Source of the DNA: a virus
Length of the DNA stretch: 31,009 bases
Direction: 5' to 3' (one strand)
IMG/VR virus record: IMGVR_UViG_3300031800_000784
Coordinates: 1-31,009 of that record
Every line of letters begins with the position of its first letter. Within the stretch, counting starts at the first letter, position 1. Positions 1 to 27,924 of this stretch are shown here, in pieces. The notes below the pieces were generated by a model. That model did no database searches. It had not been told where the DNA came from and worked only from the letters and a program-made list of their open reading frames with translations. Made by a program: the position numbers and the translations under genes.

Positions 1-14
1 CCCGCTAAGGCGGG
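1..14 (-). terminator. Terminator hairpin, cut by window edge
   Basis: CCCGC-TAAG-GCGGG forms a 5-bp stem with a 4-nt loop. It abuts the stop codon (minus strand) of the DUF4760-like gene. The expected U-run would lie left of position 1, so the terminator is only partly visible. Confidence 0.6.
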
Positions 15-692
15 TTACTTTTGGTTTGGTTTTATCTTTCCATGCTTTACGTTATTTAGTTGTTTGAATATTTTCTTTATTTGTATTCTAGTTTCTTTTT
101 CTTCAAAGCTATCTCGTTTTATCGTCCACTTTAAAACTAGCCAAGTAAAGTTAACATACAAAGATTCGTTAGATTTCTGCCTTTCTTTTATATAGCTTCT
201 AAAGTTTACACCCATGAACAATACAGAACTTTTATGCGAGCTATATAAATAGTTTTCATCTAATAAACCATGTCTGATTGCATTTGCTGCTTGTTCCCAT
301 TTGTTTAATATATCTCTCAAAGCCGCAGCTTCATCAGACCTAACAAGCTCAGGTGATGCAAGCGCTCTTATAACATCCATGGTCGGAGTTTTACCAAGTA
401 TGTAATCTTCTTTATTATTTGCCATTAGACGGTTAATAAGGAGAATATTTTCATGGTAACCGTCGTTTTCTTGTAGCTCTTTTTGAAAATCTAGCGTGTT
501 TTTTTCGCGTGCTGTTCTTCGCTGAAAGTAAATTGAAATAACAGCACCTGATATAGCTAAAAATGCTGAAAACAAAATAGCAATTGCGGCAAGATAACCG
601 GGACTTGCACTTTTTATTAATAAAACTCCTGTCAGTATAACTGTTAAAAAGTAAAGAACTAACAACTCTATATGTACTTTTCTAACTTTCAC
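15..692 (-). CDS. DUF4760-like membrane-anchored protein, probable accessory (moron) gene
   Basis: This 225-residue protein has two hydrophobic segments near the N terminus (about residues 9-27 and 33-55), then a charged, probably cytoplasmic helical domain. The stretch LRDILNKWEQAANAIRHG followed by LLDENYLY (about residues 126-152) resembles the core of DUF4760, a family of unknown function common in bacteria and prophages. The start is GTG, the only one fitted with a Shine-Dalgarno (GGGAA, 6-7 nt upstream). The gene is AT-rich compared with the structural genes and lies outside the core phage modules, next to the repressor side. That position is typical of lysogenic conversion or superinfection-exclusion genes, but this role is inference. 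A terminator hairpin lies only about 15 nt upstream of the start (see findings). The family assignment is from memory of the motif. Confidence 0.7.
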   Translation of the reverse strand: MKVRKVHIELLVLYFLTVILTGVLLIKSASPGYLAAIAILFSAFLAISGAVISIYFQRRTAREKNTLDFQKELQENDGYHENILLINRLMANNKEDYILGKTPTMDVIRALASPELVRSDEAAALRDILNKWEQAANAIRHGLLDENYLYSSHKSSVLFMGVNFRSYIKERQKSNESLYVNFTWLVLKWTIKRDSFEEKETRIQIKKIFKQLNNVKHGKIKPNQK

Positions 693-707
693 AACATTCC
701 CTTAAAC

Positions 708-734
708 AAAAAAAGAGCCAATAGGCTCTTTTTA
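708..734 (-). terminator. Intrinsic terminator directly in front of a gene (attenuator candidate)
   Basis: GAGCC-AATA-GGCTC, extended by A/T pairs to a 10-bp stem (710-719 with 724-733). On the minus strand the stem is followed by a run of seven U. The next gene on that strand starts at 692, leaving about 15 nt, which holds the ribosome binding site but no room for a promoter. Transcripts of the DUF4760-like gene that start upstream must therefore read through this hairpin. It could also stop plus-strand transcripts, but no plus gene precedes it. Confidence 0.6.
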
Positions 735-750
735 AAATATATAATCGAGT

Positions 751-792
751 TCAGCTTAATAAAGCCCAATCTTCTTCGTTAAAGTTATTCAT
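751..792 (-). CDS. Tiny ORF (13 aa), possible leader peptide
   Basis: ATG-to-TGA reading frame coding for MNNFNEEDWALLS, preceded by a strong Shine-Dalgarno AAGGTGA (796-802) 3-4 nt before the ATG, a tight but usable spacing. It ends 17 nt before the terminator at 734-708 and is co-oriented with the DUF4760-like gene behind it. This is the order of a leader-peptide attenuator: small ORF, terminator, gene. The composition (Asn, Glu, Trp) does not match a run of one regulatory amino acid. It could also be the 3' part of a small RNA. Expression is unproven. Confidence 0.3.
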   Translation of the reverse strand: MNNFNEEDWALLS

Positions 793-1156
793 GAATCACC
801 TTTGACCATCACGTTGCTGGAGCAGGGGGTTAGCCTGCACACGATAAAATATACAAATGTTTCTTTGTTTTAATGTTTACCGTGTAAATAAATATAACTG
901 ACGCCAAAGTCATAGACAAGTAAGGGATTATCCGTATTTGTCTCATGCAGTCTCAAACCGTTGTAAGTAGCAGCCTAGCGCTACATAGAACATTTAGTTA
1001 TATACACTGTCAATATTCGAAAATAAGTATTTTTCTAATATTATTCTAATACTTTTTTAATATTTATCGTGTTCGATTTTGGTTCGCCTTGTTAAAAAGT
1101 GCGCTATAAATTAATGTATGCACTTACAAACATTACGGAAAATATAAGGATAAGGC
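793..1156. other. AT-rich non-coding region with short dyads
   Basis: No convincing gene is seen. Minus-strand TTGACA (1008-1013) could be a -35 element feeding the small ORF, but its -10 (TTCTAT at 17 bp) is poor. Short dyads are present: GTAGC/GCTAC within 966-985, and AAGTATT/AATACTT (1025-1031 with 1048-1054). GCAGG/CCTGC lies near 822-839. A plus-strand TATAAA near 1105 may belong to the promoter of the following gene. The whole stretch could be a small RNA gene on the minus strand ending at the 734-708 terminator; this is inference. Confidence 0.35.
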
Positions 1157-1972
1157 ATGATATTAAAAGTATTGAGTTGGTTTTTTGGAATAAGTTTTTT
1201 AATAAGTGGCATAGCAAGTTTAAGCACAGGCGATAGTGTTACAGGGTTAATTTTATTACTGGCTTCAGCAATATGTTTGCCACCATTGCTAAACAAAATA
1301 AACGCAGCAGCAAAAGGCAAAGTAGAGCTAACGCAAGGTAGGGCAGTAATAGCAAGCGTTGTATTATTATTTATTGCAGCGGCATTCGCTACGCCACCAC
1401 CAACACAGCAAAATGCACAGCAGGCAAAAGTAAAAACTATTAACTATACAATAATAGGTGAGCGAGATTACAGCTTCAATGGACGCGATAGGTTTGGTGT
1501 GTTTGTTCATGCGCCAGAGGCAAAAACAAAATTAGAACGCGCGGCAGTAGTAAAGCAAGCTGCAATTGATCTGCAAAAAAGAACAAACGCAGACTTTACG
1601 GATGCAACACTTGAGGTAGCTGATTTTAGCTATCAGCAAGGCAACGTATTAGCAATGGCTGACTATGCACCAGACGGCTGTGGGGTTAGCGGTGAAGACT
1701 GTACAGGAGAAAAGTTTAAAATAGAGGTTTCAGATGCGCAAGTTACGGCCTTGCAAATAGATGTGCTCAGGGAGTGGGAAAAGTTAAAGGGGCAATACCG
1801 AGGCAGTAAAGGGTACTTGAACCTAGAAGATGAAGCTAAAATGACAGCTGTTATTGCTAAAAAACTTGGCATAGCAATTAGCGAAACTAAAACGCCTTAC
1901 ACAGGAACGTTAAAAAAGATTAGTGAGGATGAGGTAGAGAGTAGTAATAAAGTAAGAGTAAAAAGCATTTAA
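1157..1972 (+). CDS. DUF4875-like membrane protein, accessory gene
   Basis: A 271-residue protein with two N-terminal hydrophobic segments (about residues 4-22 and 26-44) and a third at about 64-81, followed by a soluble domain from about residue 90. The soluble part (TIIGERDYSFNGRDRFGVFV, then an ERAAVVKQAAIDLQ-type helix) resembles DUF4875, a family of unknown function. Two close Cys in CGVSGEDC (about 175-182) may form a disulphide or bind metal. An AAGGATAAGGC purine-rich tract lies before the ATG. The gene is monocistronic: a terminator follows directly and the next gene is convergent. It sits on the conversion-gene side of the repressor, so a role in host fitness or exclusion is plausible but not shown. 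Confidence 0.7.
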   Translation: MILKVLSWFFGISFLISGIASLSTGDSVTGLILLLASAICLPPLLNKINAAAKGKVELTQGRAVIASVVLLFIAAAFATPPPTQQNAQQAKVKTINYTIIGERDYSFNGRDRFGVFVHAPEAKTKLERAAVVKQAAIDLQKRTNADFTDATLEVADFSYQQGNVLAMADYAPDGCGVSGEDCTGEKFKIEVSDAQVTALQIDVLREWEKLKGQYRGSKGYLNLEDEAKMTAVIAKKLGIAISETKTPYTGTLKKISEDEVESSNKVRVKSI

Positions 1973-1978
1973 AAAATA

Positions 1979-2000
1979 GCCCGCAAACGCGGGCTTTTTT
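1979..2000 (+). terminator. Intrinsic terminator between convergent genes
   Basis: GCCCGC-AAAC-GCGGGC (6-bp stem) followed by six T. A run of A before the stem lets it also end minus-strand transcripts of the repressor gene, which stops at 2020. Confidence 0.85.
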
Positions 2001-2019
2001 GTGCCTGGTGTTTAGTTAA

Positions 2020-2640
2020 TTAAAACGACTTACCCGCAAACACCACTTTACCCACTAATGTGCAGTTGCCATTAATTGGTATTAGTTGCTCAGGCCAGTT
2101 GGGGTTGGCGGCTTTTAAAAACTTTTGGCCGCTTTCAATAATTAGCTGCTTAAAGGTCGCTTCGTTATTATCGTCTAGGCGGGCTACTACGTAAGAACCG
2201 TGGATGCACTCAGCTTCAGGATCTACAAATATTAAATCACCGTCATAAAACTTCGGTTCCATACTCACACCTTGCACTTTTAACGCAAAGGTTAGGTCGC
2301 TGCAATTTACGGGGCATAAGTAACGCTCTGCATCATACGCTTTAATTTCACTAATCTCAGACCACGCACCTGCTTGCACCCAGCTAATTAACGGCACAGC
2401 CGCTTTAAGTGTTGGGCCCGGTGCAACGTTGCTATTTATGTTGTCACTAATTCCAAAGCGTAAATACTCGGGAGTGCACTGCAATGCACGGGCTAAAGCT
2501 TCAATATTACGCGGGTTTTTAGTTCCACCTTTTTCTAGTCTCTGTATTGCTGTTTGAGCAATCCCCACTAAATCAGCGAGTTCGTATTGAGTAAGTCCTA
2601 GCTCTTTACGACGTTTTTTAACTCTATCTGCGATATCCAT
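2020..2640 (-). CDS. cI: CI/LexA-type phage repressor with self-cleaving S24 domain
   Basis: 206 residues. The N-terminal HTH_3 DNA-binding domain (about 5-62) includes TQYELADLVGIAQTAIQRLE. The C-terminal S24 peptidase domain has the nucleophile Ser126 in GVSMEP, the general base Lys164 in ATFKQL, and an Ala90-Gly91 cleavage bond in WVQAGAW. These are the hallmarks of RecA-stimulated autocleavage, so the prophage is probably SOS-inducible, unlike P2 itself, whose small C repressor lacks this domain. The ATG is preceded by GGGAA. The gene faces away from the early operon and has its own promoter (2691-2720), so it is expected to hold the lysogenic state and regulate itself through the sites in 2703-2813. 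This is a confident family call. Confidence 0.95.
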   Translation of the reverse strand: MDIADRVKKRRKELGLTQYELADLVGIAQTAIQRLEKGGTKNPRNIEALARALQCTPEYLRFGISDNINSNVAPGPTLKAAVPLISWVQAGAWSEISEIKAYDAERYLCPVNCSDLTFALKVQGVSMEPKFYDGDLIFVDPEAECIHGSYVVARLDDNNEATFKQLIIESGQKFLKAANPNWPEQLIPINGNCTLVGKVVFAGKSF

Positions 2641-2690
2641 ATAAATTCCCTTTATTTATTTTTATAACTTTAAGTGATTATGTTCGGAAG

Positions 2691-2720
2691 ATTATCACAG
2701 CTTTATGTTATCTCAGTCAA
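2691..2720 (-). promoter_or_regulatory. Repressor (maintenance) promoter
   Basis: On the minus strand, TTGACT (2720-2715), an 18-bp spacer and GATAAT (2696-2691): 5/6 matches at each box. The transcript would start near 2684 and read the repressor gene after a leader of about 45 nt. TTATGTTA inside the spacer is an operator-like half site. Confidence 0.65.
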
Positions 2721-2813
2721 ATAAGCAAAACTTATATTTTAATAACATAATGTTTTAAATTGAGTTGACAATAACATTATTGGATCATAGGATAAGTAAA
2801 AGTTATATTTTAA
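2703..2813. promoter_or_regulatory. Operator cluster of the lysogeny switch
   Basis: A 22-bp direct repeat (20/22 identical) occurs at 2721-2742 and 2792-2813, the second just downstream of the early -10 box. The first copy starts with the perfect dyad ATAAG-CAAAA-CTTAT. Between them lie AACAT-A-ATGTT (2744-2754) and AATAA-CA-TTATT (2770-2781), and TTATGTTA (2703-2710) mirrors TAACATAA (2742-2750). These sites overlap both divergent promoters and are the obvious targets of the CI-like and Cro-like proteins. Which protein binds which site cannot be told from sequence. Confidence 0.55.
2765..2793 (+). promoter_or_regulatory. Early (lytic) promoter
   Basis: TTGACA (2765-2770), a 17-bp spacer and TAGGAT (2788-2793); the transcript would start near 2800 and lead into the Cro-like gene at 2824. 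The operator-like AATAACATTATT overlaps the -35 end and spacer, consistent with repression by the CI-like protein. Confidence 0.7.
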
Positions 2814-2823
2814 GAGGTTTTTT

Positions 2824-3042
2824 ATGTCTGCCATTGAAAAAGCAGTTTGCCTAATTGGTGGGCAAACAAAATTAGCAAAATATTTAGGGACTACCCAAAC
2901 AGCGGTTTTTTACTGGATTAACCGCCACGGCCAAGCCCCAGCGAAATACATCCCGCGTATTTCTGAACTAACCAACGGTGAAGTATCGGTAAACGATTTA
3001 CTCGCCGATCACCAAAAAACAAACAAGGACGATGCAGCATGA
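2824..3042 (+). CDS. Cro/YdaS-like antirepressor regulator
   Basis: A 72-residue protein with one helix-turn-helix: IGGQTKLAKYLGTTQTAVFYWINR (about residues 11-34), the pattern of YdaS/Cro-type regulators. It is the first gene of the rightward early operon, divergent from the repressor, with AAGAGG upstream of ATG. By position it should be the Cro or Cox counterpart that shuts off repressor synthesis. The stop overlaps the start of the next gene (ATGA), indicating coupled translation. Confidence 0.85.
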   Translation: MSAIEKAVCLIGGQTKLAKYLGTTQTAVFYWINRHGQAPAKYIPRISELTNGEVSVNDLLADHQKTNKDDAA

Positions 3043-26135: not shown

Positions 26136-26710
26136 ATCAGGCAATAACCGGCATAATGACCAATGCTGGCAAGGGATACATAACAACAGCAACGCTGCAA
26201 AACAAAGGGCTTGAAGTAACAGAGCTAGTGTTTGCAAACATACCCGGGCTAAACGAGCAAGCAGAGCGCAACCCAAACGAAAAAATGCCGGGCGGCGCAC
26301 AAATAGTTTACCGACGCAACATAGATACCTCGGGCTATGTAGATGCAAATACAGTCGCGTGGGCAGTAGTGCTAGAGCAAGATATAGGCGACTTTGACTA
26401 CAACTGGATTGGCCTAGTTACACGCGACGGCACGCTGCTAGCAGTCGATTACTTACCGCTACAGCGCAAGCGACAAGGCGTAAACAACGTGCACAACCGC
26501 TCGTTCGTTTTAAAGTTTGCAGCAGCCGCAGCCCTAGCGCGCATTACCATTCCAGCGCAATCGTGGATGTTCGACTACAGCCCGCAAATAGACGCGCTAA
26601 CACTGTTAGCAACCAGCAATGCAACGGCACAAATAAACAACATGCGACGCACTGTGCGCAACTACTTTTTAAATAAAAACTTCAGCAATTTCAGCAAGGA
26701 ACTATCATGA
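26132..26710 (+). CDS. Tail fibre N-terminal (anchor) protein, DUF3751-like
   Basis: 192 residues. MTNAGKGYITTATLQNKGLEVTELVFANIPGL near the start and VDANTVAWAVVLEQDIGDFDYNWIGLV (about 71-97) are typical of the N-terminal fibre domain that anchors P2-type fibres to the baseplate. The receptor-binding part is carried by the separate next gene, which starts in an ATGA overlap. This split of anchor and tip differs from the one-piece P2 gpH. Confidence 0.8.
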   Translation: MNQAITGIMTNAGKGYITTATLQNKGLEVTELVFANIPGLNEQAERNPNEKMPGGAQIVYRRNIDTSGYVDANTVAWAVVLEQDIGDFDYNWIGLVTRDGTLLAVDYLPLQRKRQGVNNVHNRSFVLKFAAAAALARITIPAQSWMFDYSPQIDALTLLATSNATAQINNMRRTVRNYFLNKNFSNFSKELS

Positions 26711-27924
26711 GCGTAACGCAAATAAACCAGCTAGTAACCGCAGCCGACCAGCTAACATCAGCAATCGAAGGCAAAGCAGCCGAAATCGACAGCAAAACAA
26801 CGCAGCTAGACCAGTTCGTAAAAGCCAAAGCAAACGAAATGGCAATCGTTGCATCAGAAGGTTACCGCAACGCAATCGAGCACGCGTCAGGTGGCCGCAA
26901 CAAAGTCATCATCGATGAGCAAGGCAACCCAAATGTAATGGTAGCAATTGCCCCGTTCACATACGAAGAGTTGGCGGCAAAAATCCAAGAAAAATACAGC
27001 GTAGATTTAAATCTAGGCACAGGCATACCAACCATGTTTATGCGCAACGGTGTGCAGTTGGGCGAAGTGTACATTGGTAAATACCTAGCATCAGCCGGAG
27101 CAAATGGCGGCTGCAGCGTTATCGGTGGCGTGCAGCCTCGCACATCAGTTAATTACGATACAGCAAAAGCGATATGCAACAACAAAGGCGACGGCTGGCA
27201 CATGATGAGCATTCACGAGTGGGCAGCAATAGCGCTGTGGTCTTATGCAAATGGCACAGTGCCGCGCGGCAATACAAACTACGGACGCAGCCACGAAAAC
27301 AAATTAGAAACAGCACGCCGTGGCGACAACGGCTTGCCAGGCGATGCATCAGGACTTGCAAGAACCGATACCGGCAAAGGCCCTGCAACATGGTCGCACG
27401 ACCACACAGAATGGGGTATTCAAGACCTAGTAGGTAGCGTGTGGGAATGGCTAGACCAAATGATGCTAGACGAAGGGCAGATCATTACTACGCTCGACAA
27501 CAACCCAGCAGTAATTGAAGAAAACTGGAACAAGCACACGGCGTTTTTCGACTCGCCAACGGCAAACACGGAAGGCACCGGCAGCGCTGGATCTCCAAAG
27601 CTAAGCAACAGCGTTACAAATCGCAACGGCCCAGTAGGCAATGACGCGAACGACAATCCTCATTTAACAAACAGTCACTTTGCAGCAATCGAAAAGGCGC
27701 TCGACTACAACAAAATCGAGCTGCTACGCCGCCTGTTAATCGAGTCAGAATCAACCACTACGGTTGGCGGCTACATCTACTGTCGAAATTATGGCAGTCG
27801 ATTCCCGCTACGTGGCGGCAACTGGCTCCATGGCTCGAACGCTGGGCTGGGCGCGCTCAGTCTGTACGGTGCGCGTTCGTCTGCGGACAGTGCGATCGGT
27901 TTTCGTCCCGCTTTCTTTGCGTAA
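26707..27924 (+). CDS. Receptor-binding protein with FGE/C-type-lectin fold: diversity-generating retroelement target
   Basis: 405 residues. An N-terminal coiled coil (about 8-40) and a small domain lead to an FGE/C-type-lectin-like domain (about 115-405): GDGWHMMSIHEWAAIALWSY, TVPRGNTNYGR, TEWGIQDLVGSVWEWLDQMM, and the terminal GFRPAFF. The last 45 residues have the form FPLRGGNW--GSNAGLGAL-L--ARSS---IGFRPAF, the standard DGR variable region. The candidate variable codons (Leu374, His375, Ser385, Tyr387, Gly388, Ser392, Asp394, Ser395) all end in C or T, as mutated AAC/AAT codons would. The position after the fibre anchor makes it the host-receptor tip, like Mtd of phage BPP-1. No reverse transcriptase or template repeat is in the window. 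Confidence 0.88.
   Translation: MSVTQINQLVTAADQLTSAIEGKAAEIDSKTTQLDQFVKAKANEMAIVASEGYRNAIEHASGGRNKVIIDEQGNPNVMVAIAPFTYEELAAKIQEKYSVDLNLGTGIPTMFMRNGVQLGEVYIGKYLASAGANGGCSVIGGVQPRTSVNYDTAKAICNNKGDGWHMMSIHEWAAIALWSYANGTVPRGNTNYGRSHENKLETARRGDNGLPGDASGLARTDTGKGPATWSHDHTEWGIQDLVGSVWEWLDQMMLDEGQIITTLDNNPAVIEENWNKHTAFFDSPTANTEGTGSAGSPKLSNSVTNRNGPVGNDANDNPHLTNSHFAAIEKALDYNKIELLRRLLIESESTTTVGGYIYCRNYGSRFPLRGGNWLHGSNAGLGALSLYGARSSADSAIGFRPAFFA
27781..27921 (+). repeat. Putative DGR variable region (VR)
   Basis: This is the 3' end of the lectin-fold gene. Its codon use (CTG, GGG, TCG, GCG, CGT) differs sharply from the rest of the gene (CTA, GGC, AGC/TCA), as expected when the sequence is copied from a template. 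The invariant 3' end CGGTTTTCGTCCCGC is a candidate initiation-of-mutagenic-homology (IMH) site. The left edge is approximate. Confidence 0.78.

What the first reader, a model, noticed from the sequence alone, without database searches (positions are those of the whole stretch)
692..802. Small ORF, terminator and gene in attenuator order before the DUF4760-like gene
A 13-codon ORF with a strong ribosome site is followed by an intrinsic terminator whose U-run ends about 15 nt before the GTG start of the next gene. There is no room for a promoter after the terminator, so expression must depend on read-through. That suggests conditional expression, attractive for a defence or exclusion gene sensing translation stress or phage takeover.
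Basis: partly seen in the sequence, partly recalled or inferred. Interest (0 to 1): 0.5.

Follow-up and report, generated by a model that had tools for sequence, protein, structure and literature searches.

The report
Tiny peptide gene guarding a toxin?
A 13-amino-acid peptide gene and a transcription stop sit just ahead of a membrane-protein gene in a marine phage; the same trio recurs in other phages and plasmids, and further phages carry free-standing copies of such peptides, which suggests the peptide restrains a defence protein and that rival phages copy it to escape.

Summary
On the minus strand the order is promoter, sORF (792-751, MNNFNEEDWALLS*), intrinsic terminator (core 728-715), DUF4760 gene (692-15). 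In 26 of 26 related viral DUF4760 loci with upstream DNA, an SD-preceded short ORF containing EEDW or EENW precedes a terminator and the gene. More distant relatives keep the layout with DEFDGF* or EIDLGI[FL]* peptides. The peptide is under purifying selection (pN/pS 0.16). No consistent antiterminator was found, so classical attenuation is not supported. Unexpectedly, phages without DUF4760 carry free-standing mini-ORFs ending in the same motifs (MNEENWDV*, MHDEFDGF*), and 5 of 23 context clusters combine two or three known leader types within 300 nt. My best reading is a toxin-antitoxin-like module, laid out like type III systems (antitoxin, terminator, toxin) but with a short peptide in the antitoxin place. 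Phage mini-ORFs would then be antitoxin mimics. Function is inferred: no toxicity, binding or defence was tested. One held paper mentions DUF4760 (listing only); none with these motifs as peptides was listed.

The parts
891..919 (-). probable promoter TTGTCT-17-TATATT of the module
   Evidence: a TTG.../17/TATATT arrangement read by eye in C5a, L003, L119 and, with TATTAT, in L002
876..888 (-). palindrome TTTACACGGTAAA next to the presumed transcription start; candidate operator
   Evidence: one exact site in the window; conserved in C5a, L003 and L119
797..803 (-). Shine-Dalgarno AAAGGTG of the small ORF
   Evidence: read; duplex energy -4.3 kcal/mol
751..792 (-). small ORF MNNFNEEDWALLS*; proposed mini-antitoxin peptide (inferred)
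   Evidence: EE[DN]W conserved in 26 of 26 related viral loci with upstream DNA, plus E8498 and a Pantoea plasmid; pN/pS 0.16
715..728 (-). core of the intrinsic terminator, GAGCC-TATT-GGCTC
   Evidence: -7.7 kcal/mol, 7 U in the next 8
708..714 (-). U-run of the terminator
   Evidence: read
15..692 (-). DUF4760 protein, 225 aa, GTG start, probably membrane-anchored; proposed toxin/effector (inferred)
   Evidence: PF15956; two strongly hydrophobic segments near residues 8 and 34; helical model, mean pLDDT 86

Best explanation
The module works like a toxin-antitoxin or abortive-infection cassette with a very short peptide in the antitoxin place. One promoter drives the sORF; most transcripts stop at the terminator, so peptide is made in excess; occasional read-through makes a little DUF4760, a membrane-anchored effector that the peptide keeps inactive. 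When an infecting phage shuts down host expression, the short-lived peptide would run out first and the effector would be freed. Phages that carry their own EENW[DG]V, EEDWGV or DEFDGF mini-ORFs would supply the missing inhibitor and escape. Shown: layout, conservation of the peptide, correspondence of peptide type and DUF4760 clade, and free mini-ORFs and multi-motif combinations in phages where no DUF4760 follows. Inferred: that the peptide binds and inhibits DUF4760, that DUF4760 is toxic or antiviral, the trigger, and that the phage copies counter it.
For: Layout fixed in 26 of 26 loci (some are near-copies), plus window, E8498 and Pantoea. DEFDGF version in E. coli P2-like prophages (leader region in 298 of 5426 E. 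coli genomes). EIDLGI version in TG1 and a Klebsiella plasmid. Peptide-level selection: 27 synonymous changes in 63.8 sites against 21 non-synonymous in 302.2, ten pairs, pN/pS 0.16 (L045 is used twice and some pairs share tree branches, so the p of 1.6e-9 is only indicative). The sORF has the better SD (median -7.1 against -3.0 kcal/mol, 31 loci with near-copies). Peptide type follows the DUF4760 tree: 10 groups need 10 changes, least possible 9, none of 200 shuffles as low. Free mini-ORFs: 10 of 18 EENW[GD]V* hits and 104 of 115 DEFDGF* hits have no DUF4760 within the 1.1-1.2 kb looked at (some contigs end sooner). 125 loci fall into 24 clusters, 23 without DUF4760. Combinations of known leader types in 5 of those 23: L130, L149, L156/L245, L210, L238; L185 adds a near-repeat, DEFEGF-DEFDGF. 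Control: 497 shuffled motifs gave 1 hit in 120 of the 258 loci. Type III systems share the antitoxin-terminator-toxin order (PMC5086642, passages), and phage phiTE escapes ToxIN with antitoxin-like repeats (PMC3475682, abstract).
Against: No experiment shows toxicity, defence or binding. In the window itself the sORF SD is not the stronger one. One of the ten pairs, L049/L053, has 2 non-synonymous and no synonymous changes. The Klebsiella version has a hairpin without a U-run. Most DEFDGF* hits are two clonal lineages (59 and 23 of 125 loci), and in the second 13 of 23 lack an in-frame ATG. L161 and L207 have no ATG and L143 overlaps the start of another ORF; these may be chance. The number of EENW[GD]V* hits alone may not exceed chance for so short a pattern; the case rests on the nearby ATGs and the combinations, and the motif list was written after seeing these loci. 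L238 and L156/L245 share one overlap arrangement and may be distant kin. Orphan leaders exist (L067, L239, L228). Many free mini-ORFs also stand before terminators, so a cis role there is not excluded. Of the Bacteroidota and Planctomycetota relatives, the 7 loci examined lack the leader, so DUF4760 can exist without it.
Confidence: 0.5

Rival explanations
1. Cis-acting leader: translation of the conserved peptide (by nascent-chain stalling, acidic-run ribosome destabilisation or coupling) decides whether RNA polymerase passes the terminator, so DUF4760 is made only under translation stress or phage takeover.
For: sORF stop and terminator keep close spacing: stop to stem core 18-36 nt, mean 27.9, sd 4.7, steadier than motif to core (sd 7.1). 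Read-through is required. The window's presumed leader RNA folds better than shuffles (z -2.7), and its sORF can pair weakly with the terminator arm (z -0.75).
Against: No consistent antiterminator in 30 leaders (mean z -0.34). The C-terminal end after the motif varies in length. Free mini-ORFs and multi-motif peptides where no DUF4760 follows are unexplained.
Confidence: 0.22
2. The peptide is a small acidic-aromatic motif that binds a common host factor (polymerase, ribosome, SSB partner or the like); phages use it for their own ends, and DUF4760 modules use it for regulation.
For: In the phage mini-ORFs the motif ends the frame, and many stand at operon ends in unrelated phages.
Against: A single conserved host target does not explain why the variants match DUF4760 clades and why different variants are collected side by side.
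Confidence: 0.15
3. The leader RNA, not the peptide, is the antitoxin (true type III system).
For: Antitoxin-terminator-toxin order as in type III systems.
Against: Selection is on amino acids, start and stop codons are kept, and I saw no tandem nucleotide repeats in the leaders printed (not searched by tool).
Confidence: 0.05

Closest known systems
Type III toxin-antitoxin systems (ToxIN, AbiQ, TenpIN, CptIN)
   Same: One promoter, antitoxin, Rho-independent terminator, toxin; a phage escapes by carrying antitoxin-like sequence (PMC5086642 passages; PMC3475682 abstract).
   Different: Here a peptide ORF of about 11-22 codons stands in the antitoxin place, not RNA repeats, and DUF4760 is modelled as a helical, probably membrane-anchored protein. 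Function untested.
Phage-encoded antitoxin mimics (AdfB of ICP1 against DarTG)
   Same: A phage gene replaces the antitoxin (PMC11481870 abstract).
   Different: The copies here would be peptides of as few as eight residues, several types side by side.
Leader-peptide transcription attenuators (trp, leu, pyrBI, mgtL; recalled)
   Same: Short ORF, intrinsic terminator (trp, leu, pyrBI), gene.
   Different: No consistent antiterminator, no long run of control codons, and the motif is also found where no such gene follows.

Membership tests
PF15956 DUF4760 | profile match over the curated cut-off | tested here: met
   window protein 81.8 bits, cut-off 25; five of five records with a scan-found leader also over the cut-off
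Ribosome-mediated transcription attenuator | short leader ORF ahead of an intrinsic terminator and the gene | tested here: met
   that the ORF is translated rests on codon selection only
Ribosome-mediated transcription attenuator | mutually exclusive antiterminator pairing | tested here: inconclusive
   duplex test on 30 leaders, mean z -0.34, no common position; L041/L042, L052 and L054 reach -1.65 to -1.94. Pseudoknots and protein-aided forms not tested
Ribosome-mediated transcription attenuator | run of control codons for one amino acid | tested here: inconclusive
   codon table: EE[DN]W leaders have two Glu codons (three in L035) and one Trp codon (two in L064); no long run
Type III toxin-antitoxin | antitoxin - Rho-independent terminator - toxin in one operon | tested here: inconclusive
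   the order sORF-terminator-gene is met in 26 of 26 loci; that the parts act as antitoxin and toxin is untested
Type III toxin-antitoxin | antitoxin RNA made of tandem nucleotide repeats | tested here: not met
   each sORF holds a single short coding unit; selection is at protein level
Type III toxin-antitoxin | ToxN-like endoribonuclease fold | tested here: inconclusive
   no Foldseek match at E 0.001 or better; top VIA rows are EDS1-family proteins
Toxin-antitoxin system in general | toxicity of one product relieved by the other | not testable with these tools
   needs expression experiments
Known anti-phage defence systems | match to a PADLOC-DB 2.0.0 model | tested here: not met
   none for the window protein and five of the other six proteins scanned; the P88-type protein matches PDC-S35 only weakly, E 0.014

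The most novel reading that the evidence does not exclude
A toxin-antitoxin defence family in which the antitoxin is a peptide of roughly 8-22 residues with type-specific motifs (EEDWG, EENWDV, DEFDGF, EIDLGI). Phages, up to a 346-kb contig, carry single or concatenated copies of several types (for example MILSEEDWGVYPKDEFDGF*; or MLDEFDGF*, MNEENWDV* and MNEENWGV* in one stretch of about 290 nt) as broad-spectrum anti-defence peptide arrays. Further motifs in the same peptides (G[YF]GEG, AEDVDVF) would point to effectors not yet known.
Probability: 0.42. Interest if true: 0.92.

Novelty: new variant of a known kind. Interest (0 to 1): 0.78.

Why it matters
If true, an almost unmentioned protein family (the word DUF4760 occurs in 1 of 5.39 million held papers) becomes a defence module with perhaps the smallest protein antitoxin, and ORFs of about eight codons, which annotation usually ignores, become a readable record of which defences a phage has met. 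It gives a direct, cheap test: do the motif peptides neutralise the matching DUF4760?

Tried and rejected
Classical antiterminator: tested by duplex energies, not supported. Stop-codon read-through from the sORF into the gene: compared by hand from start positions, the two frames agree in some loci only; rejected. Known RNA family: only sub-threshold Rfam matches in 1-3000; the one over this site has E 4.8. sORF pattern in genome contigs: 10 hits, none with DUF4760; 8 of 10 have more than 40 open codons upstream. Bacteroidota and Planctomycetota: 16 of 395 and 38 of 294 genomes have a PF15956 match. Of 46 loci held, only 7 were recognised by a profile of this subfamily and examined: 0 with a motif sORF, 1 with a terminator, and L089 has little upstream DNA; the other 39 were not examined. 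Gammaproteobacterial genomes at large could not be searched (no handle). Fold: no Foldseek match at E 0.001 or better, no PDB sequence match at E below 0.7.

Literature, listings only unless said: searches listed nothing recognisable on DUF4760 function, on the motifs as peptides or on an sORF-terminator defence cassette (the one DEFDGF hit, PMC3390330, is an RNA-topology paper). PMC9964261, which mentions DUF4760, was not opened. PMC11323111 was seen in passages only. In 'ToxIN' was matched as 'toxin', so the counts mean little; three papers were used. Only open-licence PMC papers are searchable.

Rows dropped or weak: L056 and L065 have no upstream DNA. L034 (broken DUF4760) and L036 were left out of the spacing and codon tests; L038 and L068 were left out of the antiterminator test. 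The 8 EENW[GD]V* hits that are DUF4760 leaders were not put into the clustering. L127, L009, L013 and L016 are hits inside longer frames. L148 and L150 (inside one long frame) and L147 (a 354-aa ORF beginning MNEENWD) were not counted. L161, L207, L143 and the orphan leader L239 stay in the 23 clusters. For L038 and L068 a script's coordinates were one base off and were corrected only for the sORF.

Full report
What was checked. The window is a virus record of 31,009 bases with P2-like genes. On the minus strand I read a promoter-like site (919-891), a 13-codon ORF MNNFNEEDWALLS* (792-751) preceded by AAAGGTG, an intrinsic terminator (core 728-715, U-run 714-708), and 15 nt later the GTG of a 225-aa gene (692-15). 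The gene belongs to Pfam DUF4760 (E 6.9e-23).

Is it more than chance? A search for relatives of the protein gave L002 and L003 (43% identity), and both have a short ORF and terminator before the gene: MNVYREEDWPI* and MNNFNEEDWPI*. A scan for the sORF alone, blind to the gene, found ten viral stretches; five are followed by a terminator and DUF4760. The same pattern in genome contigs gave ten hits, none with DUF4760. An alignment search gave 28 viral DUF4760 loci. Two begin at a contig end. In the other 26 of 26 there is an SD-preceded ORF of about 11-16 codons with EEDW or EENW, for example MKKIYREEDWGVFSSK*, MTVRRIYSEENWDV*, MNKFVIVFNEENWGF*. The script saw a terminator in 24, and I read it by eye in the remaining two. 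Some of the 26 are near-copies (L041/L042, L049/L050), and all were reached through this subfamily's own alignment.

More distant relatives keep the layout with related peptides: Vibrio phage E8498 MMKKTYQEEDWGFDIKS*, Pantoea plasmid MVKKIFRLEEENWDV*, Yersinia phage TG1 ...SEIDLGIL* with a broken DUF4760, a Klebsiella plasmid ...REIDLGIF* whose hairpin lacks a U-run, and E. coli P2-like prophages MKKMYDEFDGF* and MNKAFDEFDGF*. The last type is common: the leader-gene stretch matches 296 of 5426 E. coli genomes, and the leader alone 298.

What is selected is the peptide. Over ten pairs there are 27 synonymous changes in 63.8 sites and 21 non-synonymous in 302.2 sites, pN/pS 0.16. L045 is used twice and some pairs share branches of the tree, so the binomial p of 1.6e-9 is only indicative; one pair, L049/L053, goes the other way. 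L059 and L063 encode the same 16 residues with six synonymous differences. Stop-to-stem spacing is 18-36 nt in 32 leaders, and with the start codons I chose the gene begins 7-49 nt after the stem in 31, so there is hardly room for a separate promoter. Across the family the sORF has the stronger SD (median -7.1 against -3.0 kcal/mol); the window itself is an exception (-4.3 against -5.3).

Is it an attenuator? A ribosome-controlled switch of the trp kind needs an alternative pairing for the terminator arm. In 30 leaders the best upstream partner is on average no better than in shuffles (mean z -0.34) and lies in different places. The window's sORF does pair weakly with the arm (z -0.75). Leaders have two Glu codons and one Trp codon (two Trp in L064), no long run of control codons. 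A cis role of the nascent chain is not excluded, but it is not supported either.

The turn in the story. A scan for YREEDWG gave 12 hits, 11 on contigs already known to hold the cassette and one, L127, inside a 188-residue frame. A scan for EENW[GD]V followed by a stop gave 18 hits: 8 are DUF4760 leaders, 10 have no DUF4760 and are the ends of short frames such as MMEENWDV*, MNEENWGV*, MLNEENWGV*, MNEENWDV*. Their number alone may not exceed chance; their form does. A scan for MNEENW added L149, with MNEENWDV* and MNEENWGV* 92 nt apart, each with a good SD, and MLDEFDGF* a little upstream. A scan for DEFDGF* gave 115 hits, 11 with DUF4760 within 1.1 kb downstream and 104 without; some of the contigs end sooner. 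I clustered 125 loci by their flanks (the 10 EENW hits, L149 and the other 114 DEFDGF hits): 24 clusters, one of 14 loci with all 11 DUF4760 cases and 23 with none. In 12 of those 23 representatives an in-frame ATG lies within three codons of the motif; I would expect about one in twenty (3 of 64, my estimate). Two clusters are large clonal groups (59 and 23 loci), and in the second 13 of 23 lack an in-frame ATG. L239 is an orphan leader; L161, L207 and L143 may be chance. Many of these mini-ORFs stand just before a terminator. Named examples: Enterobacter phages PG7 and CC31 (between CC31p053 and gene 47). The flanks of the largest cluster match TL-2011b and phiV10, next to the terminase small subunit (I did not re-read the mini-ORF in those records).

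Combinations are the strongest hint of function. Within 300 nt on one strand, 5 of the 23 clusters hold two or three different known leader motifs: L130 (MKDEFDGF...EENWGV*), L149 (DEFDGF, EENWDV, EENWGV), L156/L245 (MNIQTSEENWDV* overlapping MYDEFDGF*), L210, on a 346-kb contig (MILSEEDWGVYPKDEFDGF*), and L238 (EENWGF...EENWDV* overlapping MYDEFDGF*). A sixth, L185, has MLDEFEGFDEFDGF*, a near-repeat. L238 and L156/L245 may be distant kin. The motif list was written after these loci had been seen, but a control with 497 shuffled motifs over 120 of the 258 loci gave one hit. These motif types head different DUF4760 clades: on a tree of 33 DUF4760 proteins the 10 peptide types need 10 changes, the least possible being 9, and none of 200 shuffles is as low (several long branches, so deep joins are unsure, and near-copies help the clustering).

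Interpretation. Collecting several variants that match several clades of one protein family is what an arms race would leave, and hard to explain by a leader that acts only in cis or by one host target. I therefore read the cassette as antitoxin peptide, terminator, toxin. Type III toxin-antitoxin systems have just this order; [quoted passage not shown] Phage phiTE escapes ToxIN by antitoxin-like repeats (PMC3475682, abstract) and ICP1 counters DarTG with a functional antitoxin (PMC11481870, abstract). The analogy is in layout and countermeasure; this is not a type III member, because the antitoxin candidate is a peptide.

The effector. An AlphaFold model of the window protein (27-sequence alignment, mean pLDDT 86, pTM 0.73) is all helical. 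Two strongly hydrophobic segments lie near residues 8 and 34. Foldseek finds nothing at E 0.001 in the PDB. A second look by VIA-align puts six EDS1-family plant immunity entries on top (Z 8.1 to 11.1; best 140 residues aligned, rmsd 3.5, model 44-195), above the next row at 6.8. For helical proteins this may be only a common arrangement, so I treat it as a lead.

Limits. No function was measured. Orphan leaders (E. coli plasmid, L239 and L228) and IS421 insertions beside the gene fit several models. The seven outgroup loci that were examined lack the leader. Literature statements rest on the open-licence library and mostly on listings.

Noticed in passing
L004 5001-6126 (phage C5a) and L119: The same promoter and TTTACACGGTAAAC box precede a different cassette: a 61-63-aa ORF whose stop codon lies in the terminator hairpin, then a membrane-like protein of about 270-300 aa. 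It looks like a second cargo with a read-through design.
   Followed up: partly
L130, L139, L149, L156, L249: ORFs ending in or containing [IV]G[YF]GEG occur in phages that also carry the EENW or DEFDGF peptides; AEDVDVF recurs in L130 and phage CC31 (L265). They may be leader motifs of unknown effectors.
   Followed up: partly
L007 and L012: Short phage ORFs MNKFNEEDWPIIGGSSDFDNEFTGA* and MNNFIEEDWPLDPNAYEGK* start like Pseudoalteromonas-type DUF4760 leaders but stand before other phage genes.
   Followed up: no
window 15-692, model mcd6e8f400ace: The soluble part of the DUF4760 model aligns with the helical C-terminal region of EDS1/SAG101 family plant immunity proteins (best Z 11.1). Possibly only a common helical arrangement.
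   Followed up: partly
L070 and L270 (E. coli LS4, MSI001): IS421 sits just upstream of the DUF4760 gene in both; in LS4 the leader lies on the other side of it, 161 of the 191 query bases matching.
   Followed up: partly
window 26707-27924: 405-aa protein beside tail genes with a weak FGE-sulfatase match (below cut-off) and a strong match to phrog_2889; such C-termini can be targets of diversity-generating retroelements (recalled). No reverse transcriptase was looked for.
   Followed up: no
window 1157-1972: DUF4875 protein of 271 aa on the plus strand between the DUF4760 module and the repressor; possibly further cargo of the same site.
   Followed up: no
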